Source: Acidimicrobiaceae bacterium | Lineage (GTDB): Bacteria > Actinomycetota > Acidimicrobiia > Acidimicrobiales > MedAcidi-G1 | DNA: 21,704 nt | Assembly (NCBI GenBank): GCA_002713545.1 | Contig: PATJ01000003.1 | Location: 1 to 21,704, forward strand | Direction: 5' to 3' | Shown here: piece by piece, positions 1,895-15,212 of the stretch | Layout: each line of letters begins with the position of its first letter | How positions within the stretch are numbered: position 1 is the first letter of the stretch | Notes under the pieces: model-generated | Told to the model about the DNA's origin: nothing | Seen by the model: the letters and a program-made list of their open reading frames with translations, nothing else | The model's database searches: none | Translations under genes and position numbers: made by a program

Positions 1895-3031
1895 TCAGGG
1901 CCTATGTTCATTGAGCCACACGAGAGACACCTCAGTACGGTCGAAAGTAGGCGTTACCTCGATCACTGCCACAGGGGCTTCGGCGTCTTCAGATATTTCC
2001 TCGGCGACTGATATTGGCATCTCTATCCTGCCCTCATCCCGGTCATAGTGGAGGAACCTAGTCGGAAGTCCGGTGAATTCAGAAATTTCCTCGACCCAAG
2101 CAGAGTGATCTTCGAACGACGAGTAAATTGCCCCGAAGAACAAGGTTGCATCATCGCTCAATGTCTCATGCGGTGCGATAGTTGCCTCCCCCCTTCTCAT
2201 GAATCTCCTCCTCATCTGGCCTGCATCCTTGTAAACCGAGGTGCAGTACTTCAAGTGGAATCCATACGGCTCCCTGGCCTTTCCATCCAGTGGGTCTCTA
2301 GCGCCGATCGAAGCCGCCATCACCCTGTCCCTGAGGGATTGTGCGAGCTCGGATGATCCCTCGGCACCAGCGGTAATCTCGGTTGACAAGTTGAATCCCC
2401 TGAGTTCCATGTTGTCGTGGTTCCCCACAGTTATCTCAAGCTCGTTCAGGTTCAGGAAGCTCACATCGAAGTCCCTCAGGTCTTCCAGAATCTGCATCAA
2501 TTCCTCCTCCTTGTCTGGCTCGCAGGGGAGCTCGACTCCAGTCAGGATACCGGACCGTGCGCAGGCTGCAATTGTTTCTTTGTACTGGTCTGCCTCCAAA
2601 TCCAAGAAGTGGAAGCGGATTTCATCGAGGCCCGCATCTGCGAAATCTGCGGCCCATTCCGGACGGAATGGGATGCTGGTGTACATATGGAGGTGGAATT
2701 CTTGTCCGAACTCCTCCTTCAGGGCCCTGATTCCTTCCAAAGACCTCTCCCTTGCCATTAACGGGTCTCCCCCTGTGATCCCGGCCCCAGTTGCTCGCAT
2801 GGCCCGGGCCTCCTCGATTACCTCGTCGAACGACCCACAGGGCCTTTCGTTGGCGTACATGAAATCGATATCTCGTCTGGTCTCCGAGAGAGGGCAATAG
2901 TCGCACCTCCAATGGCAGTTGCCCGTTATGAAAAGTACCAGTTTGCTGCCCATCTGGCATTGTATGCAACCCTCGCAATCTGCAAGATCGGCAGTCTCTG
3001 CAACCTCTACAGTCTGAGGCAGAATGCTCAT
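1895..3031 (-). CDS. Radical SAM protein of the COG2108 type (related to pyruvate formate-lyase activating enzymes)
   Basis: This 378-residue protein has the radical SAM cluster motif C39-x3-C43-x2-C46 within GNCHWRCDYCPLS, followed by YANERP (59-64) and a glycine-rich GITGGDP (84-90) that fits the SAM-binding GGE-like motif. An extra CxxCxxC (C19, C22, C25) just upstream could bind a second cluster or a metal. These features match the uncharacterised archaeal COG2108 group, whose reaction is unknown to me. The ATG overlaps the pdxT stop as ATGA, so the two are probably translationally coupled. The C-terminal ~100 residues (from about 275) carry no motif I recognise. The radical SAM assignment is firm; the substrate is not visible from sequence. 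Confidence 0.85.
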   Translation of the reverse strand: MSILPQTVEVAETADLADCEGCIQCQMGSKLVLFITGNCHWRCDYCPLSETRRDIDFMYANERPCGSFDEVIEEARAMRATGAGITGGDPLMARERSLEGIRALKEEFGQEFHLHMYTSIPFRPEWAADFADAGLDEIRFHFLDLEADQYKETIAACARSGILTGVELPCEPDKEEELMQILEDLRDFDVSFLNLNELEITVGNHDNMELRGFNLSTEITAGAEGSSELAQSLRDRVMAASIGARDPLDGKAREPYGFHLKYCTSVYKDAGQMRRRFMRRGEATIAPHETLSDDATLFFGAIYSSFEDHSAWVEEISEFTGLPTRFLHYDRDEGRIEMPISVAEEISEDAEAPVAVIEVTPTFDRTEVSLVWLNEHRP

Positions 3032-3624
3032 TGAAAGGCCTCCTTGGCTGACTCCAGAAGCCAGACGTGGAACCCCGGGTCACCGGATAACTCGGGGTGG
3101 AATGTGAGAGCTACGACATTACCGGTCCTCACACCGACCACCTCGTCCCCGTGCATCGCTGAGATCTCTGCATCGTGTGATATGAATCTCGGGGCCCTGA
3201 TGAAAACTCCGGGAAAGTCGCACCCCAATAGGGGCGAGTAGAGAGTGTCTTGGAATGAGTCGGACTGTCTGCCGTACGCATTGCGGTCGATTCTGGCATC
3301 GACCAGTGGGTAGCCCCCATCCTGTGGGTCCGAGAGGAGGATTGCTCCCGCACAAGTGCCCAGCACGGGCAGTGTCGGCCTATCCCTGATCCACTGGAAG
3401 AGCCCGGGAAGCAGATTCGATGCCTCGTCGAGTCCTGTCAGCCTCATGGTGGTCGACTCTCCGCCCGGTAGAACGAGTGCTTGAGGGTCGGACGATTGAA
3501 GATCGGAGAGTTTTCTGATCTCGTGAATCTCCACCATAATGCCAGAACGCGAAGACGCTGCCTCTATTGCGGCGATATGCGCGTGTCTCGCGCCCTGAAG
3601 CATGACCAAGCCGATACGGAGCAC
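3028..3624 (-). CDS. pdxT: Pyridoxal 5'-phosphate synthase glutaminase subunit PdxT
   Basis: This 198-residue class I glutaminase releases ammonia from glutamine for the PdxS synthase in the DXP-independent vitamin B6 pathway. The family motifs are all present: LPGGEST (52-58), GTCAGA with nucleophile C91, RNAYGRQ (114-120) and TFHPEL with H176 and E178 of the catalytic triad. Length fits the family (~190-200). The start is GTG; an in-frame TAG lies six codons upstream, so no longer N-terminus is possible. No good Shine-Dalgarno sequence is seen. PdxS is not in the window. The gene is divergent from serC, a PLP-dependent enzyme, across ~80 bases, and overlaps the downstream radical SAM gene. 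Confidence 0.95.
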   Translation of the reverse strand: MLRIGLVMLQGARHAHIAAIEAASSRSGIMVEIHEIRKLSDLQSSDPQALVLPGGESTTMRLTGLDEASNLLPGLFQWIRDRPTLPVLGTCAGAILLSDPQDGGYPLVDARIDRNAYGRQSDSFQDTLYSPLLGCDFPGVFIRAPRFISHDAEISAMHGDEVVGVRTGNVVALTFHPELSGDPGFHVWLLESAKEAFQ

Positions 3625-7137: not shown

Positions 7138-7866
7138 ATGGAGATGGTGGTGCTCGCTTTCCTCGGTTGCTTCCTAGCGGCCGCGCTGACGGTGCCTGCC
7201 GGGTTCGGGCTGTCGACCATGCTGACGCCGGTTGTTCTCCTGATGATGGGGCCCCACGAGGCGGTTGCCGTCGTTGCGGTGGTCCATGGCGCCCACAACG
7301 CCGGGAAGTTCGTTGCACTGAGGGAAAGCGTCGACCTCTCCGCGTTCCGGCACTACGGGGTATGGCTGGTCGCGGGGGCAATCATAGGGGCGCTGCTTCA
7401 GAACCAGGTACCGCAGGACCCGTTGCTGGCCGTGATAGGCGTCTTCCTGGTGCTGCTGCCGATACTCACCCTCAGCGAGTCGTGGACCGGGTACAGGATT
7501 CCTGAGGCGAATGACAGGGTGGGTGGCTTCGGTTCCGGATTCATGGGGGGCCTTTCAGGGCACCAGGGCGCCCTTAGGGCGATGTTCCTGACGAGGAGGC
7601 TGAGCGACAAGATGACGTACGCCGCCACGGCTAGCGTCCTGGCGCTTTGCGTGGACCTATCGCGGATTCCCGTCTACCTGTTCTTCAGGCCGGACGAGAT
7701 TGTGGAGCACCTCCAACTGACTGCCATTTTGGTGGTAGCAGCCCTGCTTGGAGTCAGGGTTGGCAAGAGGTGGTTGGAGACAATGAAGTCGGAGTTGATC
7801 CGTAAGATTGTGATGTCGGGAATAGTTGCCAGCGGTGCTTTCTACATACTCGAGTCAGTGGCCTAA
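7138..7866 (+). CDS. TauE/SafE-family membrane transporter (sulfite/organosulfur exporter family)
   Basis: A 242-residue integral membrane protein with about seven or eight hydrophobic segments. The two-fold repeat typical of TauE/SafE (former DUF81) is visible: VPAGFGLSTMLTPVVLL near the N-terminus, GAIIGALL in the first half, and GFGSGFMGGLSGHQGALRAMFL in the second. Family members export sulfite, sulfoacetate or other small anions; the substrate here is not known. AGGTG (7128-7132), overlapping the upstream stop, gives a ribosome site 5 bases before the ATG. Pairing with a thiol-redox protein hints at sulfur chemistry (inference). Its stop overlaps the stop of the convergent phoU-like gene. 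Confidence 0.85.
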   Translation: MEMVVLAFLGCFLAAALTVPAGFGLSTMLTPVVLLMMGPHEAVAVVAVVHGAHNAGKFVALRESVDLSAFRHYGVWLVAGAIIGALLQNQVPQDPLLAVIGVFLVLLPILTLSESWTGYRIPEANDRVGGFGSGFMGGLSGHQGALRAMFLTRRLSDKMTYAATASVLALCVDLSRIPVYLFFRPDEIVEHLQLTAILVVAALLGVRVGKRWLETMKSELIRKIVMSGIVASGAFYILESVA

Positions 7867-8927
7867 ATTCTACCTAATTGAGGGGAAGAAACCTCAAAGG
7901 AATCTCTGTGAGATTGAATATTCAGTAAAATCTCGCTCATGTTTATGGAATAGGCACATATCCTCCTCAGAGACTCAGAAATACGGTCCAGGAATAGGGC
8001 TTCTGAGATTTCCATAGAACTAGATCTGAGTTCTGTCTCGAAATCCTCGAGACCCACTAAGGCTGAAGAAAGTCTCTCCTTGGCCAAGTGAATCTCGGAT
8101 ACCTTTCTCTTCCGAAAGTTAGAGATAAGGAGTTTAATCGATTCCTGCCACACCGGAATTGCATCCAAGGGTGTTTCTTCGATCGACAATTGACTGCTGT
8201 CCTCCCTCTCCAAAGTTAATTTGCAAAGAGCATATGAGTGATCGCCCATTCTTTCCATCGTCCTGACGACTTTTCCCAATTCCGACGCCTCCCATCTCGA
8301 AGTCCCCAATGAGTCCTCGATACTAGCAGACTCCAATATCTGCCCTACCTGCCTCTCAAGAAGTAGCCTGATCGCGTCCACCTCCTGCTCTCTTTCATGG
8401 CAGTCCTCTAGAACTTCCTTATCTGAACCTCCAAGAACGTCTACGACATCTCTAATTTGACTCAGGATTAGGAGATACATCCTATTCAGACTTGAGTAGA
8501 GTGGCATCTCCGAAGGACTCAGTAGACTTATCATATCTATCGAGTTTTCACTTTCCGATGATATGTCGACGCCTCTTGAGGTATTGACGAATTTCCGGAA
8601 TATCTTCCTCTCTGTTCGAGAGAATCCGGAGTTTGAACGTATTCTAATCACCTGAGTGCCTGCCAAATAAGCTGCTACTAGGTGATCGAACACCATGTTC
8701 TCTGGAACATCATCAAGATCTATTGCCACCTCCCTACGTCTGCTAATGGATGATGCTTCTGGAATCACTCTCAGGGTTCCCGATGGACGCCACTCTATTC
8801 GCACGTGGTCCTTGGCAGCCAAACCATGTTCTGTAACCCACTTCTTAGGCAGACTGACTATGAATGTGGAACCACCAGTCTGTTGTAATCTCCTTACCTC
8901 TGACTTAGGTGCTCCCTCATGATTCAC
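7863..8927 (-). CDS. phoU: Archaeal PhoU-family phosphate uptake regulator with AbrB-like N-terminal domain
   Basis: A 354-residue protein with a GTG start. Residues ~8-55 (VRRLQQTGGSTFIVSLPKKWV and following) form a SpoVT/AbrB-like swapped-hairpin DNA-binding domain. From ~120 there are two PhoU-type helical repeats, each with an acidic cluster (HEREQEVDAI around 175-185; MERMGDHSYAL around 225-235). This is the architecture of archaeal COG0704 PhoU. It probably controls phosphate uptake, and the divergent PiT transporter is the obvious target. A TATA-like TATTTATTTA lies about 26 bases upstream of the GTG, consistent with a leaderless message. Base composition is clearly lower in GC than neighbours: 7921-7980 and 8521-8580 are each 24/60 GC, while 9781-9840 in the PiT gene is 33/60. 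Confidence 0.9.
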   Translation of the reverse strand: MNHEGAPKSEVRRLQQTGGSTFIVSLPKKWVTEHGLAAKDHVRIEWRPSGTLRVIPEASSISRRREVAIDLDDVPENMVFDHLVAAYLAGTQVIRIRSNSGFSRTERKIFRKFVNTSRGVDISSESENSIDMISLLSPSEMPLYSSLNRMYLLILSQIRDVVDVLGGSDKEVLEDCHEREQEVDAIRLLLERQVGQILESASIEDSLGTSRWEASELGKVVRTMERMGDHSYALCKLTLEREDSSQLSIEETPLDAIPVWQESIKLLISNFRKRKVSEIHLAKERLSSALVGLEDFETELRSSSMEISEALFLDRISESLRRICAYSINMSEILLNIQSHRDSFEVSSPQLGRI

Positions 8928-9048: not shown

Positions 9049-11172
9049 ATGGAACCGATAATGAGTCTAGTCCTGATTGTATCTCTGGTGGTTTGTGCCT
9101 ACATGGCATGGAACATCGGAGCTAATGATGTTGCCAATGCAATGGGTACGTCTGTCGGGTCAAGGGCCCTTACGCTCAAGCAGGCAGTGATCATAGCCGC
9201 CATATTCGAGTTCGCAGGTGCGTTCTTCGCTGGTGACGCGGTTACGGACACCGTGCGAAAGGGCATCCTCTCTGTGGACTTCGAGACGGTCACGGAAAGC
9301 TTCGCGAACGATCTGATGTACGGGTTCATTGCGGCCATGATGGCTGCCGCGGTTTGGCTTACCGTAGCAACCAGATACGGGCTGCCCGTATCCACAACTC
9401 ACAGCATAATCGGCGGTATTGTCGGTGTGGGGCTGGTTCTCGAGGTTCAGCATGACACCTCCCTGATCGACTGGGAGGTCATCCAGAAGGTCGTGATGTC
9501 ATGGGTGGCTAGCCCGCTGATGGGCGCCCTCCTGGCGTTCTTCACTTTCTTCATAGTTAGGGAGACCATCCTCGAGGCCGACGACCCGATTGGGAGGTCG
9601 AGGTGGCTCGCACCGATACTGGCTATACCGACATTCTTCGTCCTAGGGCTGGCGCTCCAGTTCAAGGCCCTGAAGGGTTTCTTCTCGAGGGCGCAGTCAG
9701 AGGGGTGGATTGAGAGCAAGTACGACTGGTTGCCAGTCAAGGAGAACGGTTCCTGGAACCCGATGGACGCCAACGCCTGGTTCCCGATCAACAGCCTGAT
9801 TCTTGCCAGCATTGTCGCTGTAATTGCGGCAGCGGTCCTCGGTTACGTCCTGAGGAACTACGAGTTCAAGGGAGAGGAGGACGGCTTCCACGGGGTCGAG
9901 AGGATTTTCGTCTGGCTGCAGGTCATCACCGCTGCCTACGTCGCCTTCGCCCATGGGGCTAACGACAGGTCGAACGCGATCGGGCCAATGGCCGCCGTGT
10001 ACCAGGTCCTGTCTAGCGGCGGGGAATTGGCCGAGTCGGCTGAAGTTCCCGTTTGGCTGGTGCTCCTCGGGAGCGCTGGAATAGCGATTGGTGTTATGAC
10101 CTGGGGATGGAGGGTCATGGACACCATAGGGACCAAGATCACTGACATCACGCCCACGAGGGGATTCGCTGCCGAGTTCGGGGCCGCGACCACCATACTG
10201 ATCTTCTCGATGCCCTTCCTCGCAGTACCTGTCTCGACCACTCACACGCTGGTCGGAGCAGTGGTCGGCGTTGGCCTGGCTGGGGGCGCGAAGGCTGTCG
10301 ACTTCAGGGTGTTCGGCAAGATCTTCGCTTCATGGGTCGCGAGCCTCCCAGCTGCTGGATTCGGCTCGATATTGATATTCGTCGCCGTTGCTTCTGATCC
10401 GATCAAGCTACTGGTGGTGATACCAATTGCTCTAGCCGGTGTTGGTTACGTGATTTGGAGCACGCGCGACGATGAGATCTACGTCGAGGACGCCCTCGCT
10501 GAGGTTGGTGGCGGCCCCGAGGTCGGGTCCCCTACCTACTTCGAGCTGTTCCACACTCATGCTGAGGCGGTGAACGAGACCGTTGAGCACATGCTGGTCG
10601 CTGTCAATGCCGCTGCTGACGGAAAGGACCCGTCTGAGGAGATAGAGGCCACTGTGGCCGCTGAGCTCAGGGCTGACAACATCAAGAACGACCTGAGGAA
10701 GGCGATTGGCTCTGGCCAGTGGAGCCTCCTCCTGAGGTCGGAGGACTTCATGGAGATGCTGAGCAAGCAGGACAGGATAGCGGACTATGCGCAGAATGTG
10801 GCTGAGCAGCTGTCGTTCAGGCCGCTTTACGAGAATGAGGGGGCCAGGGAAGCCCTGAAGGAGATGGGAGAGTCAGTGGCAAAGACCGCTTCACTCTACG
10901 AGGAGTCGGTCACCGCACTCCGTGACCTGACCCTTTCCGGGTACACCAAGGCGGGTCGCGAGAAGCTAGGCGAGCTGATTGACAAGGTGAACCTGGCCGA
11001 GCACGATGCAGATCTAGTCGAGGGCAGGGCAGCGTCCCTGGTCTTCAGCGAGGGAGACGATGAGGCTCTCGCAGCCATGCACATGTACAGGGTCCTACAG
11101 AGGATGGACGACGTTGCGAATGCTTGCGAGTCGGCGGCTAACGCCTTCCTTCCGATAGTCTACAACAACTAG
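9049..11172 (+). CDS. PiT-family phosphate transporter fused to a C-terminal PhoU/DUF47-like domain
   Basis: A 707-residue protein. Residues 1-470 are a PiT (inorganic phosphate, proton- or sodium-coupled) permease with both halves of the family signature: GANDVANAMGTSVGS (24-38) and AHGANDRSNAIGP (301-313), plus the paired PVSTTH motifs at 113-118 and 394-399. A hydrophilic loop (~205-245) separates the halves. Residues ~495-707 are all-helical and acidic, with repeats resembling the PhoU/DUF47 Pit-accessory proteins (for example LSKQDRIADYAQNVAEQL and MHMYRVLQRMDDVANACESAANAF). Normally that accessory is a separate gene. It is divergent from phoU. The ATG at 9049 is used; another at 9061 is possible. 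Its stop (CTAG) is shared with the convergent PAP2 gene. Confidence 0.93.
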   Translation: MEPIMSLVLIVSLVVCAYMAWNIGANDVANAMGTSVGSRALTLKQAVIIAAIFEFAGAFFAGDAVTDTVRKGILSVDFETVTESFANDLMYGFIAAMMAAAVWLTVATRYGLPVSTTHSIIGGIVGVGLVLEVQHDTSLIDWEVIQKVVMSWVASPLMGALLAFFTFFIVRETILEADDPIGRSRWLAPILAIPTFFVLGLALQFKALKGFFSRAQSEGWIESKYDWLPVKENGSWNPMDANAWFPINSLILASIVAVIAAAVLGYVLRNYEFKGEEDGFHGVERIFVWLQVITAAYVAFAHGANDRSNAIGPMAAVYQVLSSGGELAESAEVPVWLVLLGSAGIAIGVMTWGWRVMDTIGTKITDITPTRGFAAEFGAATTILIFSMPFLAVPVSTTHTLVGAVVGVGLAGGAKAVDFRVFGKIFASWVASLPAAGFGSILIFVAVASDPIKLLVVIPIALAGVGYVIWSTRDDEIYVEDALAEVGGGPEVGSPTYFELFHTHAEAVNETVEHMLVAVNAAADGKDPSEEIEATVAAELRADNIKNDLRKAIGSGQWSLLLRSEDFMEMLSKQDRIADYAQNVAEQLSFRPLYENEGAREALKEMGESVAKTASLYEESVTALRDLTLSGYTKAGREKLGELIDKVNLAEHDADLVEGRAASLVFSEGDDEALAAMHMYRVLQRMDDVANACESAANAFLPIVYNN

Positions 11173-12014
11173 TCCTGCCAGCCGCTCTCGGTGGCCATCT
11201 CTGATGGCCCCTTGCGCTCCACCATCTCCATGACGGGCAGGAAGAGCCTCCAGCAAACCACTCCCACCAATGCGCCGGTGAACAGGTCGAACAGGTAGTG
11301 CTGCTTGGTGGCGAGGATGCTTATGCATAGCAGCACCCACTCGATCCACAGTATGGCGATGAACGCGGAAGCTGCCTTGCTCTCCGGGTGCTCCCTGACG
11401 ACCCAGAAGGTCATCAGCCTGGCGAGCAGGTACGAGTGGACGATGTGGAGGCTCGGCCAAGCGTTCCAGGGATTGTCGGAGAAGTGGATGAAGCCGAAGA
11501 GCGCGTCCTCCAACGCGTTGGGGGGGTGGTCCAGCCAATGGGTGTCGAGCTGGTCCCTGAGATCGATCTCGGCAGGCAGCGCCATGAAGAAGAAGACGCA
11601 CAGCATCGTGGCGAGCGCTAGCCCCTGGATTCCCAGTGCTAGCTCCATCCTGCCCCTGTCATCACGGGGGGCGATGAAGAGTGTCGCTGGGTAGAAGAGG
11701 TACAGCGCGGCATACGGGATGATCATCCAATTTATCACGGGGAAGTCTCGGTCGAAGGCTATCTCGGGATCCCAGACGGTCGAAAGGTAGCTTGCCGCGA
11801 TGTTGTTTGAAGCGAAGTAGGGGATCGCCACGCAGGACACACCCAATGCGAATACGAACAGGGTGAACATCCACCCGCCCATGTCCTCCCTGCGAGACCA
11901 CATTGGCCTCCACACGCCCTTCCAGGGCAGGAGAATAGACAGTGGCGCCCTTCCATCCACGAGCACGCGTGGCAGGGTTCGTTCATGAACAAAGCGCAAG
12001 GGCCACTCATTCAT
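11169..12014 (-). CDS. PAP2-superfamily membrane phosphatase
   Basis: A 281-residue protein with about six membrane segments after a ~45-residue cytoplasmic-looking N-terminus. The C-terminal half holds the PAP2 core: WNAWPSLHIVHSYL (183-196, H190) and TKQHYLFDLFTG (236-247, H239 and D243), which supply the phosphatase His and Asp. The KxxxxxxRP motif of classical PAP2 is not obvious, so it resembles the PAP2_3/inositol-phosphorylceramide-synthase-like branch. Substrates in the family are lipid phosphates or other phosphate esters on the outer membrane face. The ATG overlaps the symporter end by 8 bases, so it should be translated from the same TPP-riboswitch-controlled message. It may serve lipid metabolism or act on thiamine phosphates (inference). 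Confidence 0.85.
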   Translation of the reverse strand: MNEWPLRFVHERTLPRVLVDGRAPLSILLPWKGVWRPMWSRREDMGGWMFTLFVFALGVSCVAIPYFASNNIAASYLSTVWDPEIAFDRDFPVINWMIIPYAALYLFYPATLFIAPRDDRGRMELALGIQGLALATMLCVFFFMALPAEIDLRDQLDTHWLDHPPNALEDALFGFIHFSDNPWNAWPSLHIVHSYLLARLMTFWVVREHPESKAASAFIAILWIEWVLLCISILATKQHYLFDLFTGALVGVVCWRLFLPVMEMVERKGPSEMATESGWQD

Positions 12015-13470
12015 CGTCAGGGAGTGCGAAGGACCCAGCGACCGTCACGATGGAGGAGCCTATTACCGCTGAGAGGAATACGTGCAGGTTCGCTAGGCCG
12101 AACTCGTTTGTAGGCGAGAAAACATACCATATGCCTGTTCCAAGATCTTCTGTGAATGTGCCGTATGCGACTACGGATAGCAACCCACAGACTGCACCCA
12201 GTAGTGCACCTCTGGCCGACACCTCGCCCCACAGTGAGAGAAGGACTGGCATAACCGTGGCTGCAGCTAACAAGTCGGCGAAGAGGAATATCTGAAACAC
12301 ACCGAGTGCATCGAAGGTGAACAATCCAATGATGGGGACACTGAAAGGAACGGTAGGGCCAGTGGCCAGATAGATTGCTATGGGAATCATGCCGATTGTC
12401 AAGTAACGCGCATTCTGCAGACTCATCGTGCTATCGCTGAGGTCTCTTGATATCGAAGCCACAATGGCATTTTGCAGGGTATCGACGCTGGAGCATACCA
12501 GAGCGATTGCAAGGACGATGAATGCGGCTACAAACAGAACACCGGCATCCTCAATCAGGTAGAAGAAGGCTGCAGACGGGTCGGTAACGGCCCCCTGCCC
12601 AGCGACGACGGTCCCGAGGACGCCCATCACGAATACCAGCGGGAGGACGAGGGCCGCAGCGAGCCATGCCCCCTTGGCCAGGGCCTCGTCGGACTCAGAC
12701 GCCCACGCCCGCTGCCAGTTCCCCTGGGAGAACATCTCAGCAGCGGTGATAGCGATGATCAGAGCCAGGCCCGAATCGAAAGATTCCATGTACGACATAG
12801 ACCCGATGCTCCAGGAGTCTTCGGGGTTGTATGCCCTAGCATCATCAATCAGCCCCCCGATGTCTCCGCCGAAAAGAACGAGCAAGAGGACCACCACGAG
12901 GAACATGATGGTCCACGCCTGGACTCTGTCGGTCGCTAGGGATGCTGGAAGGCCGCCTCTGGATACGTACCCTGCGGTGACAATCCCAACAAGTGCCATG
13001 GGGATTAGCGGCTCCATCTCGGAGAGAGTCTCCATCCCCTTGCCGATTGCAGTGAACTCGGCGAACAGGAAGGTGAACATGTATAGCACCGAAATCAGCC
13101 CCACGTAGACCTGCATTGGCCTGCCTAGGCGGATGCGCACGTAGTCGGCCAGAGTCACTCCCGACGGCAGCCTCTCGCGGATCATCGGTCCGACATACGC
13201 CAGAAGTAGGAATGGCATGGACGCGGAGACGGCGTAGCCGACTACATCCCAGAACCCGCCGTAGTAGCCGACCTCCGATGGGCCGAAAAGGATCCATATC
13301 CCCATCCCGGAGGCGAACAGGCTCAGCCCGATTCGCAGCCAGTCCTGCGAGCCCCTGGCCGAGAGGTAGTCATCGGCCTCGATCTCCTTGGCATTCGATG
13401 CTTGGTATCCGATGTAACCGAAGACACCCAGCGTTGCAATCATCAATCCGTATGCGATATTCGTATCCAT
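12007..13470 (-). CDS. Sodium:solute symporter (SSS) family transporter under a TPP riboswitch; probable thiamine or thiamine-precursor importer
   Basis: A 487-residue polytopic protein with about 13 hydrophobic segments. The SSS fold is indicated by the N-terminal DDYLSARGSQDW, the SGMGIWILFGPSEVGYYGG segment, TEFTAIGKG-like helix 4 (FAEFTAIGKGM) and the ALVCSSVDTLQNAIVASISRDL helix late in the chain, all family landmarks. The SSS family moves proline, sugars, urea, pantothenate and others. Proximity to P5C dehydrogenase would suggest proline. However, a TPP riboswitch lies directly upstream, which points to thiamine or its pyrimidine precursor; the SAR11 ThiV transporter is an SSS protein with the same control. 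GGAGG at 13482-13478 gives a strong ribosome site 7 bases before the ATG and is part of the riboswitch 3' end. Confidence 0.88.
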   Translation of the reverse strand: MDTNIAYGLMIATLGVFGYIGYQASNAKEIEADDYLSARGSQDWLRIGLSLFASGMGIWILFGPSEVGYYGGFWDVVGYAVSASMPFLLLAYVGPMIRERLPSGVTLADYVRIRLGRPMQVYVGLISVLYMFTFLFAEFTAIGKGMETLSEMEPLIPMALVGIVTAGYVSRGGLPASLATDRVQAWTIMFLVVVLLLVLFGGDIGGLIDDARAYNPEDSWSIGSMSYMESFDSGLALIIAITAAEMFSQGNWQRAWASESDEALAKGAWLAAALVLPLVFVMGVLGTVVAGQGAVTDPSAAFFYLIEDAGVLFVAAFIVLAIALVCSSVDTLQNAIVASISRDLSDSTMSLQNARYLTIGMIPIAIYLATGPTVPFSVPIIGLFTFDALGVFQIFLFADLLAAATVMPVLLSLWGEVSARGALLGAVCGLLSVVAYGTFTEDLGTGIWYVFSPTNEFGLANLHVFLSAVIGSSIVTVAGSFALPDDE

Positions 13471-13473
13471 TTC

Positions 13474-13567
13474 TCTCCCTCCGCTGGTATTACCCAGATC
13501 AGGTCAAGGGGTCGTCGCCTCGCGGCGACCTCTCAGCACTAAGCTCCCCCGTTTCCCCCCTGGGAAA
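13474..13567 (-). promoter_or_regulatory. TPP (thiamine pyrophosphate) riboswitch
   Basis: Read on the minus strand this matches the THI-box consensus. It has CTGAGA (13536-13531), then a GTCGCC-GCGA-GGCGAC hairpin (13529-13514) with a GNRA loop as the variable arm, ACCCCTTGACCTGATCTGG (13512-13494), the CTGG/CCAG P5 stem around GTAATA (13497-13484), and GCGGAGGGA (13484-13476). The P2 pairing GGGG/CCCC and the P4 pairing CCT/AGG can be drawn. P1 is short: TTTC near 13567 can pair with GAGA at 13477-13474, and the exact 5' limit is uncertain. The GGAGG ribosome site of the symporter lies inside P4/P1, so binding of TPP should block translation. No terminator hairpin with a T-run is seen. Confidence 0.93.
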
Positions 13568-13589
13568 CAGGATATTCAATGTTGGGACC

Positions 13590-15212
13590 TCATTCGTCCG
13601 CTCCCATGAACGGGTATGTCCAGTCCTGGGGTATGTCGAGGGTCCTCTTGACTGAGCGTGGCGATATCCACCGGAGCAGGTTGAGGGGGCCCCCTGCCTT
13701 GTCGTTGGTGCCAGACGCCCTAGCCCCCCCGAATGGCTGCTGGGCCACTACGGCCCCGGTTGGCTTGTCGTTGATGTAGAAGTTCCCGGCAGTGAACCTG
13801 AGGGCCTCGTAGGCCTTCTGGACGTTCTCCTCGGAGCTCGAGAATATTGAACCGGTCAGTGCGTAGGGAGAAGCCTTGTCACATACTTCTAGGACGCTCT
13901 CGAAGTCTTCGTCGTCGTAGAGGTAGACTGTCAGGACGGGGCCGAATATCTCCTCTATCATGGACTCGGAGTCCGGATCGGTGGTTACGATTACCGTTGG
14001 CTCGATGAAGTACCCTACCGAGTCGTCATACCCCCCTCCGCAGACGATCTCGCAGGTGTCTCTCTCGGATGCCCTGTCGATGTATCCGGAGATCTTGTCG
14101 AACGCCCTCTTGTCGATGACCGCGGTCATGAAGTTAGTGAAGTCCCTGGCATCGCCCATCTTTATTTTGCCAATCTCCGTTATCAGGTTCTCTGAAATCC
14201 CCTCCCATACGGACCGTGGGACGTAAGCGCGGCTTGCCGCTGAGCACTTCTGCCCCTGATACTCGAATGACCCCCTGAGCAGGGCCACTAGAAGGCCCCT
14301 CCTGTCGCAGTCCGGGTGAGCGACCACGAAGTCCTTGCCTCCCGTCTCGCCCACTATGCGCGGGTATGACCGTAGCCCCGGCAGTGCCAGCCCTATCTCC
14401 TGCCAGAGCCCCTGGAAGGTGGCGGTCGAGCCAGTGAAGTGCAGGCCCGCGAAGTCGGGGTTGGACAGTGCGACTTCCGTGATCTCGGCACCCGATCCGG
14501 GGAGGAAGTTGATTACCCCCGGGGGAAGTCCTGCTTCCAACATTAGTTGCATCAGAACGTAGTTTGAGAGGTATGAGTTCCTACTGGGCTTCCAGACGCC
14601 GGTGCACCCGACGATTGCCGGTGCGCTGGGGAGGTTCGCAGCGATGCTCGAGAAGTTGAACGGGGTTATCGATAGTACGAATCCCTCGAGGGGCCGGATG
14701 TCAGTAGTGTTCAGGACGCCCTCGGGAGAGACCAGTGGCTGGAAGTCGTCATGGAAGCCCCTGGCGTAGTGGCAGTTGAACCTCCAGAAGTCTATCAGTT
14801 CGCATGCAGCGTCTATCTCGGCCTGGAATGCCGTCTTGGATTGGTTTAGCATGGTTGCCGCGTTGACCCTCATCCTCCAGTCGCCGGCAAGCAAGTCCGC
14901 GCATCTCTCGAAAATCTCGCACCTTGCTTCGAGACCGATCCCTATCCACTCGCCCTGGGCGTTGACCGCTGCATCGCAGGCCGCCTCAATCTGATCCCTG
15001 CCTGCAAGGTGGACTTTGGCGATAACGTGCCCGTGGTCATGAGGCACGACTTGGGTCGTCGTGGTACCAGTGTAGACCTCCTCGCCATTGATGATGCAGG
15101 GTATCTCGATGACCTCGGACAGCTGCCTGTCGATCTCTTCCATCAGAGACTCTCTTTCGGAGCTTCCTGGAGCGTATCCCAATATTGGCTCATTCATGGG
15201 TTGTTCCGACAT
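13590..15212 (-). CDS. L-glutamate gamma-semialdehyde (P5C) dehydrogenase
   Basis: A 540-residue aldehyde dehydrogenase of the ALDH4 type, oxidising P5C/glutamate semialdehyde to glutamate with NAD as the second step of proline breakdown. Motifs: ITPFNFSSIAANLP (182-195, N186), GSTATFQGLW in the cofactor site, GETGGKDFVVAH with general base E289, and EYQGQKCSAASRAYV with nucleophile C323. The C-terminal FGGARASGTNDKAGGP is a specific mark of P5C dehydrogenases. The single-domain length (~540) resembles mitochondrial and Bacteroidetes enzymes rather than PutA. No proline dehydrogenase is in the window. It sits 48 bases after the small zinc-ribbon gene, and an A-rich TAGAAAATC in that gap could be its own promoter. 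An ATG at codon 6 is an alternative start. Confidence 0.93.
   Translation of the reverse strand: MSEQPMNEPILGYAPGSSERESLMEEIDRQLSEVIEIPCIINGEEVYTGTTTTQVVPHDHGHVIAKVHLAGRDQIEAACDAAVNAQGEWIGIGLEARCEIFERCADLLAGDWRMRVNAATMLNQSKTAFQAEIDAACELIDFWRFNCHYARGFHDDFQPLVSPEGVLNTTDIRPLEGFVLSITPFNFSSIAANLPSAPAIVGCTGVWKPSRNSYLSNYVLMQLMLEAGLPPGVINFLPGSGAEITEVALSNPDFAGLHFTGSTATFQGLWQEIGLALPGLRSYPRIVGETGGKDFVVAHPDCDRRGLLVALLRGSFEYQGQKCSAASRAYVPRSVWEGISENLITEIGKIKMGDARDFTNFMTAVIDKRAFDKISGYIDRASERDTCEIVCGGGYDDSVGYFIEPTVIVTTDPDSESMIEEIFGPVLTVYLYDDEDFESVLEVCDKASPYALTGSIFSSSEENVQKAYEALRFTAGNFYINDKPTGAVVAQQPFGGARASGTNDKAGGPLNLLRWISPRSVKRTLDIPQDWTYPFMGADE

What the first reader, a model, noticed from the sequence alone, without database searches (positions are those of the whole stretch)
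13470..13567. TPP riboswitch controlling an archaeal SSS-family symporter
The minus strand just upstream of the symporter carries a clear THI-box: CTGAGA, the CCTGATCTGG/GGTAATACCAGCGGAGGG core and a GNRA-capped variable arm. Archaeal TPP riboswitches are rare, and this one sits on a sodium symporter that neighbourhood alone would label as a proline transporter. The ribosome site GGAGG is inside the aptamer's 3' strand, so the predicted mode is translational shut-off by TPP. The gene is then a likely importer of thiamine or a precursor, which would mean reliance on dissolved vitamin B1 compounds.
Basis: partly seen in the sequence, partly recalled or inferred. Interest (0 to 1): 0.78.

Follow-up and report, generated by a model that had tools for sequence, protein, structure and literature searches.

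The report
Vitamin B1 switch on archaeal symporter
A group of uncultured ocean archaea carries an RNA switch for vitamin B1 in front of a sodium-driven transporter, and their gene content suggests that they cannot make the vitamin and import it ready-made.

Summary
The TPP riboswitch is real. Rfam RF00059 scores 54.5 bits (gathering 54.3, E 2.2e-8) on the minus strand, directly before an SSS-family symporter. The window is a Marine Group II (MGII) contig misbinned in an unrelated MAG, so pathway genes were sought in 50 MGII genomes. Of 80 orthologous loci, 60 have a whole aptamer, one is cut, 18 have none, one has no upstream sequence. P3 and P5 covary (54 double-change cells, shuffles 14.4). 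In 60 of 60 the ribosome site GGAGG lies in P4; P1 is not supported. ThiC and ThiE have 0 of 50 over cut-off, ThiL none over cut-off (43 weak), thiamine pyrophosphokinase is in 44 of 50: the likely cargo is intact thiamine. In six genomes an HTH-ThiN regulator with a palindrome accompanies or replaces the riboswitch. Against this: 18 orthologues lack the element, 14 of them abutting a proline-catabolism gene, and proline dehydrogenase is in 48 of 50, so proline uptake is not excluded. This extends the known TPP-riboswitch/SSS pairing (SAR11 ThiV, algal SSSP) to MGII archaea.

The parts
13573..13579 (-). TTGAATA promoter-like (TATA-type) box, 30 nt before the first G of the aptamer's GGGGAG
   Evidence: TTGAATA with up to 2 mismatches at -33..-27 from GGGGAG in 31 of 60 loci, 8% in single-letter shuffles; same heptamer 29 nt before the start of the HTH-ThiN gene in 5 of 5. 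Promoter role inferred.
13459..13560 (-). TPP riboswitch aptamer, Rfam RF00059 match
   Evidence: 54.5 bits, gathering 54.3, E 2.2e-8; 55 bits in the whole-genome search, there placed at 13459-13571
13547..13549 (-). P2 5' strand (pairs with 13509-13511)
   Evidence: 49 of 49 paired, invariant, so no covariation evidence
13514..13529 (-). P3 variable arm with GCGA loop (13520-13523)
   Evidence: 5 of 6 pairs have double changes; 95.9% of cells paired
13531..13536 (-). CTGAGA thi-box motif
   Evidence: Read in sequence; invariant in alignment A2
13484..13497 (-). P5 hairpin
   Evidence: 2 of 4 pairs have double changes, 100% paired
13478..13482 (-). Shine-Dalgarno-like GGAGG; its AGG (13478-13480) is the 3' strand of P4, pairing with CCU 13501-13503
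   Evidence: 60 of 60 aptamers carry GGAGG; P4 49 of 49 paired, invariant
12007..13470 (-). SSS-family symporter, 487 aa, ATG 7 nt after GGAGG
   Evidence: PF00474 57.8 bits, cut-off 22.8; TIGR00813 60 bits, below its 184 cut-off; no PutP or PanF match
13590..15212 (-). L-glutamate gamma-semialdehyde (P5C) dehydrogenase, upstream neighbour; 119 nt intergenic
   Evidence: TIGR01236 743 bits, cut-off 613.6
11169..12014 (-). PAP2-superfamily gene overlapping the symporter stop by 8 nt; possibly on the same transcript
   Evidence: PF14378 33.3 bits, cut-off 27; directly downstream on the same strand in 50 of 76 loci with enough sequence

Best explanation
A TPP-sensing riboswitch controls translation of a sodium-coupled thiamine importer in Marine Group II archaea. 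Transcription probably starts at or just before the aptamer's 5' G tract, so the mRNA would begin with the aptamer and lack a P1 helix. When TPP is scarce, P4 is loose and the ribosome reaches GGAGG, 7 nt before the ATG. When TPP binds, P2-P5 lock and GGAGG is held in the 3' strand of P4, so synthesis of the importer falls. The imported thiamine is made into TPP by thiamine pyrophosphokinase, because ThiC, ThiE and a clear ThiL are not found. Shown here: aptamer, covariation of P3 and P5, position of GGAGG, gene content, orthology. Inferred: TPP binding, direction of control, transcription start, sodium coupling, substrate.
For: Rfam match over the gathering score. 60 aptamers upstream of orthologues, 60 of 60 with GGAGG, 7 nt from the next ATG/TTG in 36 and 8 nt in 14. 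Covariation in P3 and P5. Whole-genome search of 50 MGII genomes (50 of the 80): each of 32 TPP-type genomes has exactly one RF00059 match, each of 18 TPP-less ones none; in 32 of 32 the match lies next to the symporter by the coordinates. In 11 of the 60 loci the upstream gene is not P5C dehydrogenase, so the riboswitch goes with the symporter. ThiC 0 of 50 (control: found in 13 of 14 named genomes), ThiE 0 of 50 over cut-off, ThiL 0 of 50 over cut-off, ThiN domain 6 of 50 and in all six an HTH-ThiN protein, TPK 44 of 50, 42 over cut-off. In 5 of those 6 genomes the HTH-ThiN gene is directly upstream of the symporter, a link to thiamine independent of the riboswitch. A palindrome ATGCANNNTGCAT stands before all 6 ThiN genes and before the one TPP-less symporter that is apart from its ThiN gene.
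Against: 18 of 79 readable orthologues lack the element, and the tree needs 8 changes of that label; in 14 of the 18 the symporter abuts the P5C dehydrogenase gene. Proline dehydrogenase is in 48 of 50 genomes, so proline uptake would be useful. P1 is not supported. The palindrome is not more frequent in the six ThiN genomes (9 sites) than in 18 controls (30 sites); only its places speak for it. 43 of 50 genomes have weak ThiL matches (20.7-55.4 bits, cut-off 184.15), so a divergent ThiL is not excluded. TPK is not found in 6 of 50. ThiD, ThiM, TenA and Thi4 were not searched. No residue-level substrate test was possible; no binding or expression data.
Confidence: 0.76

Rival explanations
1. 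The symporter is a proline (or other amino acid) transporter serving the adjacent P5C dehydrogenase; the TPP riboswitch ties amino acid uptake to TPP status rather than importing the vitamin.
For: P5C dehydrogenase is the upstream gene by BLAST in 62 of 80 loci. In 14 TPP-less loci it lies 17 nt or less from the symporter or overlaps it by one base (12; L065 and L098 read from the sequence). Pro_dh in 48 of 50 genomes.
Against: No match to PutP or PanF models at E <= 0.001. hhalign to E. coli PutP (probability 86.9) places M246 and G250 at PutP Y248 and P252, recalled, not tested, as proline-site residues. 27 of 50 genomes have more than one SSF match, and the six further SSF proteins examined are nearest PutP (TIGR02121 151-184 bits, all below the 515.5 cut-off). 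11 TPP loci are not beside P5C dehydrogenase. HTH-ThiN linkage.
Confidence: 0.13
2. The symporter imports a thiamine precursor or breakdown product (HMP, as reported for SAR11 ThiV) rather than thiamine.
For: The closest functional precedent, SAR11 ThiV, is an SSS protein with a TPP riboswitch and is reported as the likely HMP importer (PMC11452348, passages and section 18). Salvage genes ThiD, ThiM and TenA were not searched here.
Against: ThiE 0 of 50 over cut-off; the ThiN domain occurs in 6 of 50, in all six within an HTH protein, so no known enzyme was found that could join HMP to a thiazole. A TPK, which acts on thiamine, is in 44 of 50.
Confidence: 0.08
3. The element is a relic that no longer binds TPP (no P1, score near the cut-off).
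For: P1 45.7% paired against 44.3% in shuffles; the window scores 0.2 bits over the gathering score.
Against: Core invariant over 49 sequences with compensatory changes in P3 and P5. 28 of 30 loci of the other MAG's family, before a thiB-like gene, show the same layout without P1. 23 of 50 MGII genomes score over the cut-off, best 66.7 bits.
Confidence: 0.03

Closest known systems
SAR11 ThiV with TPP riboswitch (PMC11452348; passages and section 18 seen)
   Same: SSS-family symporter behind a TPP riboswitch in a marine plankton cell that cannot make thiamine de novo
   Different: Bacterial; reported cargo HMP. In MGII no ThiE was found over cut-off and TPK is common, which points to thiamine. 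Kinship inside the SSS family not resolved here.
Algal and bacterial SSSP/SSSQ symporters with TPP riboswitches (PMC4260697; passages seen)
   Same: PF00474 proteins, in three domains, many of whose genes carry TPP riboswitches
   Different: That paper reports no riboswitch in the representative halobacterial SSSP genes it examined; here an archaeal gene has one. Membership of the MGII symporter in SSSP/SSSQ not tested.
TPP riboswitches before thiB-like genes in the family of the MAG (L001, L003-L031; taken to be Actinobacteria, not tested)
   Same: Aptamer without P1 and GGAGG or GAAGG in the P4 3' strand; start codon 3-8 nt on in 27 of 28 loci by script
   Different: They precede a thiamine-type ABC binding protein (TIGR01254 236 bits in L011, the one scanned), not a symporter; other organism
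ThiR, HTH-ThiN repressors of archaeal thiamine genes (Hwang 2017, Rodionov 2017: not held, recalled; ThiR mentioned in PMC12029414, passages)
   Same: N-terminal HTH plus C-terminal ThiN domain, next to a transporter gene
   Different: Here the inferred targets are the regulator itself and the symporter; the HTH match is weak (HTH_3 16.9-21.6 bits, cut-off 23)
PutP sodium/proline symporter
   Same: SSS superfamily; beside a proline-catabolism gene
   Different: No PutP model match for the window symporter

Membership tests
TPP riboswitch (RF00059) | Covariance-model score at or over gathering | tested here: met
   54.5 against 54.3 bits; 23 of 50 MGII genomes over the cut-off, 9 more below it at E <= 1.2e-8, 18 without a match
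TPP riboswitch (RF00059) | P2, P3, P4, P5 helices with covariation | tested here: met
   98.5% of cells paired, 7 pairs with double changes, all in P3 and P5; P2 and P4 do not vary
TPP riboswitch (RF00059) | P1 helix closing the aptamer | tested here: not met
   45.7% paired against 44.3% in shuffles. Also no full four-pair P1 in 28 loci of the other MAG's family, so its absence does not by itself exclude membership
TPP riboswitch (RF00059) | Binds TPP | not testable with these tools
   Needs in-line probing
Sodium:solute symporter family (PF00474) | Profile match over the curated cut-off | tested here: met
   57.8 against 22.8 bits, profile positions 1-406 of 406; but TIGR00813 60 bits is below its 184 cut-off
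Sodium:solute symporter family (PF00474) | LeuT-type fold with sodium site | not tested
PutP proline symporter | TIGR02121 or NF011948 equivalog match | tested here: not met
   No match at E <= 0.001; E. coli PutP control 776 and 1143 bits
ThiV/SSSP/SSSQ symporters | TPP riboswitch on the gene | tested here: met
ThiV/SSSP/SSSQ symporters | Clade membership and Tyr78/Asp139/Phe254 (SiaT numbering) signature | not tested
   No ThiV, SSSP or SiaT sequence was obtained; signature read in PMC11452348 section 18
ThiR regulator (related loci) | HTH domain plus ThiN domain | tested here: inconclusive
   Six of six proteins: ThiN 80.7-97.6 bits (cut-off 25), HTH_3 16.9-21.6 bits, below the 23-bit cut-off

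The most novel reading that the evidence does not exclude
In Marine Group II archaea one thiamine symporter has passed repeatedly between modes of control: a minimal, P1-less, 5'-terminal TPP riboswitch; the riboswitch together with an adjacent HTH-ThiN repressor; the repressor and its palindrome alone; and loss of dedicated control by fusion to the P5C dehydrogenase transcript. It would be a natural series showing an RNA sensor of a vitamin being replaced by a protein sensor at the same gene.
Probability: 0.5. Interest if true: 0.75.

Novelty: new member of a known kind. Interest (0 to 1): 0.56.

Why it matters
Marine Group II archaea are described as the most abundant planktonic archaea of surface waters and as uncultured (PMC6461757, PMC6864105; beginnings of the abstracts in the listing). 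A TPP riboswitch on an importer, with ThiC and ThiE not found, predicts that they live on dissolved intact thiamine, which matters for vitamin B1 budgets of the sea and for attempts to culture them. It also carries the TPP-riboswitch/SSS pairing into MGII archaea, and offers close relatives in which an RNA switch and a protein regulator appear to trade places at one gene. The paper searches made for this listed no paper that I recognised as reporting the element in MGII; listings were capped and most subscription journals are not in that library.

Tried and rejected
Reading thi genes from the window's own MAG was rejected: the contig is foreign to it (symporter in 1 of 48 genomes of the MAG's family, G000 itself; window 99.9% identical over 4452 nt and 100% over 1664 and 345 nt to UBA173). 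The second RF00059 hit of G000 (C18, L001) belongs to the MAG's own lineage.

The idea that TPP-bearing and TPP-less symporters are two paralogues was rejected: they interleave on the tree (8 changes, at least 7 forced by starred branches; AU p 0.011 against one TPP-less clade, a test that assumes the group was named beforehand; rows L105, L111, L101, L037 left out of 81), and TPP-less genomes have no RF00059 match elsewhere (0 of 18). A first quick tree with E. coli PutP, PanF and ActP (L105 and L111 left out) was useless for placement: the outgroup end branches reached 10.

P1 was looked for at the Rfam register and neighbouring ones and not found (caught only 34 of 60 MGII and 3 of 30 other loci by its pattern, hence). 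The promoter reading rests on 31 of 60 loci; in the 80 loci TTGAATA lies exactly 29 nt before an open ATG in 7 of 218 cases, 5 of which are presumably the HTH-ThiN genes, so it is not an independent proof of leaderless starts. PDB searches gave nothing for the single sequence and weak glucose and choline cotransporter matches for the profile; SiaT was listed for the yardsticks but never among the printed alignments, so the HMP/thiamine residue signature stayed untested. One scan of viral contigs found no relative.

On rechecking I scanned more proteins: six instead of four HTH-ThiN proteins, six instead of one further SSF, and one thiB-like protein.

Full report
THE OBSERVATION. The Rfam TPP model matches the minus strand at 13459-13560 with 54.5 bits (gathering 54.3, E 2.2e-8). 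The downstream gene, 12007-13470, is an SSS-family protein (PF00474, 57.8 bits). The upstream gene, 13590-15212, is P5C dehydrogenase (TIGR01236, 743 bits).

WHOSE DNA IT IS. The window is contig C47 of a MAG (G000, 78.6% complete, 4.0% contamination). The other RF00059 match in that MAG lies in a locus of 41% GC, against 57% for the window. 45 of 48 genomes of the MAG's family have an RF00059 match; of the 31 fetched loci only the window's own holds the symporter, and a relative of the gene behind the others, in L011, is a thiamine-type ABC binding protein (TIGR01254, 236 bits). The symporter is found in 1 of those 48 genomes, G000. By contrast its relatives in genome contigs are records titled Euryarchaeota, Marine Group II, Poseidoniales or Thalassarchaeaceae, with one titled Thermoplasmatota (110 relatives, best 80 kept), and the window is 99.9% identical over 4452 nt and 100% over 1664 nt to UBA173, and 96.3% over 13466 nt to SP3063. 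The window is a misbinned MGII contig. That the rest of the MAG is actinobacterial is my guess, not tested with marker genes.

CONSERVATION. Reading 170 nt upstream of the 80 symporters: 60 carry a whole aptamer, L046 shows its 3' end at a contig edge, 18 have none, L111 has no upstream sequence. All 60 have GGAGG at the 3' end of the aptamer, 7 nt from the next ATG/TTG in 36 and 8 nt in 14; the six cases at 1-3 nt are spacings to an earlier ATG or TTG picked by the script. On an alignment of 49 (window plus 48 of the 60, near-copies left out) P2-P5 are 98.5% paired, 7 pairs show double changes, and 54 cells have them against 14.4 in shuffles and at most 13 in slid registers. P2 and P4 never vary, so the covariation comes from P3 and P5. 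P1 is at shuffle level (45.7% against 44.3%). A search of 50 whole genomes (50 of the 80) gives exactly one RF00059 match in each of 32 TPP-type genomes, all beside the symporter (compare), and none in the 18 TPP-less ones.

HOW IT MAY WORK. The AGG of GGAGG is the 3' strand of P4 (13478-13480), so folding of the aptamer would cover the ribosome site directly. A TTGAATA-like box (up to two mismatches) lies at -33 to -27 from the first aptamer G in 31 of 60 loci (8% in single-letter shuffles). If it is the TATA element, transcription starts at about the aptamer's 5' G tract, which would explain the missing P1. The same layout is seen in 28 of 30 loci of the MAG's own family, so it is not peculiar to archaea.

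WHAT IS IMPORTED. In the 50 genomes (chosen because they hold the symporter): ThiC 0 (found in 13 of 14 control genomes), ThiE 0 over cut-off with 2 weak, ThiL 0 over cut-off with 43 weak, partial matches, thiamine pyrophosphokinase 44, 42 over cut-off (30 of 32 TPP-type, 14 of 18 TPP-less), the one member scanned being TIGR01378 at 116.7 bits. The MAGs are incomplete, so single absences mean little, but 0 of 50 is informative. The cells should need intact thiamine. Proline dehydrogenase is in 48 of 50, so a proline importer would also find use. The window symporter matches neither PutP nor PanF models. 27 of 50 genomes have more than one SSF match (in G092 some and in G095 one are fragments), and six of these further SSF proteins are nearest PutP, at 151-184 bits, well below the equivalog cut-off.

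A CHANGE OF REGULATOR. Six of 50 genomes have a ThiN domain. In five it is the gene just upstream of the symporter (L048, L054, L056, L074, L108); in the sixth (G069, L061's genome) it lies elsewhere. All six proteins have a ThiN domain at 80.7-97.6 bits and a weak N-terminal HTH, as in archaeal ThiR (recalled; named in PMC12029414, passages). All six genes have ATGCANNNTGCAT about 50 nt before the start, and L061's symporter, TPP-less and away from its ThiN gene, has the same palindrome upstream. In whole genomes the pattern is sparse and no commoner than in controls: 1, 2, 1, 3, 1, 1 sites in the six, 0-5 in 18 controls, so the case rests on its places: 7 of the 9 sites in the six genomes stand before a ThiN gene or L061's symporter, one (L181) is inside a long reading frame, and one (G062:C35) was not examined. 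L048 and L054 have riboswitch and regulator; L056, L074, L108 and L061 only the regulator. The other 14 TPP-less symporters abut or overlap the P5C dehydrogenase (12; L065 and L098 read from the sequence). The tree needs 8 changes of the TPP label and one TPP-less clade is rejected (p 0.011). Loss is the likelier direction, because the aptamer is homologous throughout, but the root is not known and exchange between lineages is not excluded.

THE PROLINE RIVAL. P5C dehydrogenase is the upstream gene by BLAST in 62 of 80 loci. In 11 of the 60 TPP loci (L038, L039, L041, L048, L049, L054, L066, L067, L095, L096, L101) it is not, so the riboswitch goes with the symporter and not with the dehydrogenase. 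I hold thiamine import under TPP control at about 0.76.

COMPARISON. TPP riboswitches on SSS genes are known in SAR11 (ThiV; PMC11452348, passages and section 18) and in algae and bacteria (SSSP/SSSQ; PMC4260697, passages), the latter paper finding none in the halobacterial SSSP genes it checked. PMC2211319 (passages) lists thiV among TPP-riboswitch genes in metagenomes. PMC3486863 (passages) treats the TPP riboswitch as universally distributed, so archaeal TPP riboswitches as such are not new. PMC6336850 on MGII metabolism has no occurrence of thiam, vitamin, symporter, riboswitch or proline in its main text. So this is a new member of a known kind, in a lineage where my searches showed no report of it.

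Noticed in passing
window 1-21704 (G000:C47): The contig is a Marine Group II archaeal piece misbinned in an unrelated MAG.
   Followed up: yes
window 11169-12014: A PAP2-superfamily gene overlaps the symporter stop and is directly downstream in 44 of 59 TPP-type and 6 of 17 TPP-less loci with enough sequence. An outward-facing phosphatase could free thiamine from its phosphates before uptake; pure guess.
   Followed up: partly
L056:5155-5991, L048:5043-5888, L054:5044-5886, L074:5155-5991, L108:5158-5991, L169:1474-2307: HTH-ThiN regulator genes with a shared palindrome ATGCANNNTGCAT upstream, a small candidate regulon of regulator plus symporter.
   Followed up: yes
L149, L151, L154, L155, L156 (and L147, 500 aa): A second SSF type of MGII, nearest PutP; five of the six examined are 690-723 aa, with a C-terminal extension that matches no other Pfam model in the two scanned.
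   Followed up: partly
L001, L003-L031: TPP riboswitches before a thiB-like gene in the MAG's own family also lack P1 and embed the ribosome site in P4 (28 of 30 loci).
   Followed up: partly
window 9049-11172: Phosphate permease (PHO4) fused to a C-terminal PhoU_div domain, beside a PhoU/MazE-like gene on the other strand (7863-8927).
   Followed up: no
window 1895-3624: A radical-SAM gene of unclear function (best NCBIfam model MoaA at 25 bits, far below cut-off) overlaps the pdxT gene by 4 nt.
   Followed up: no
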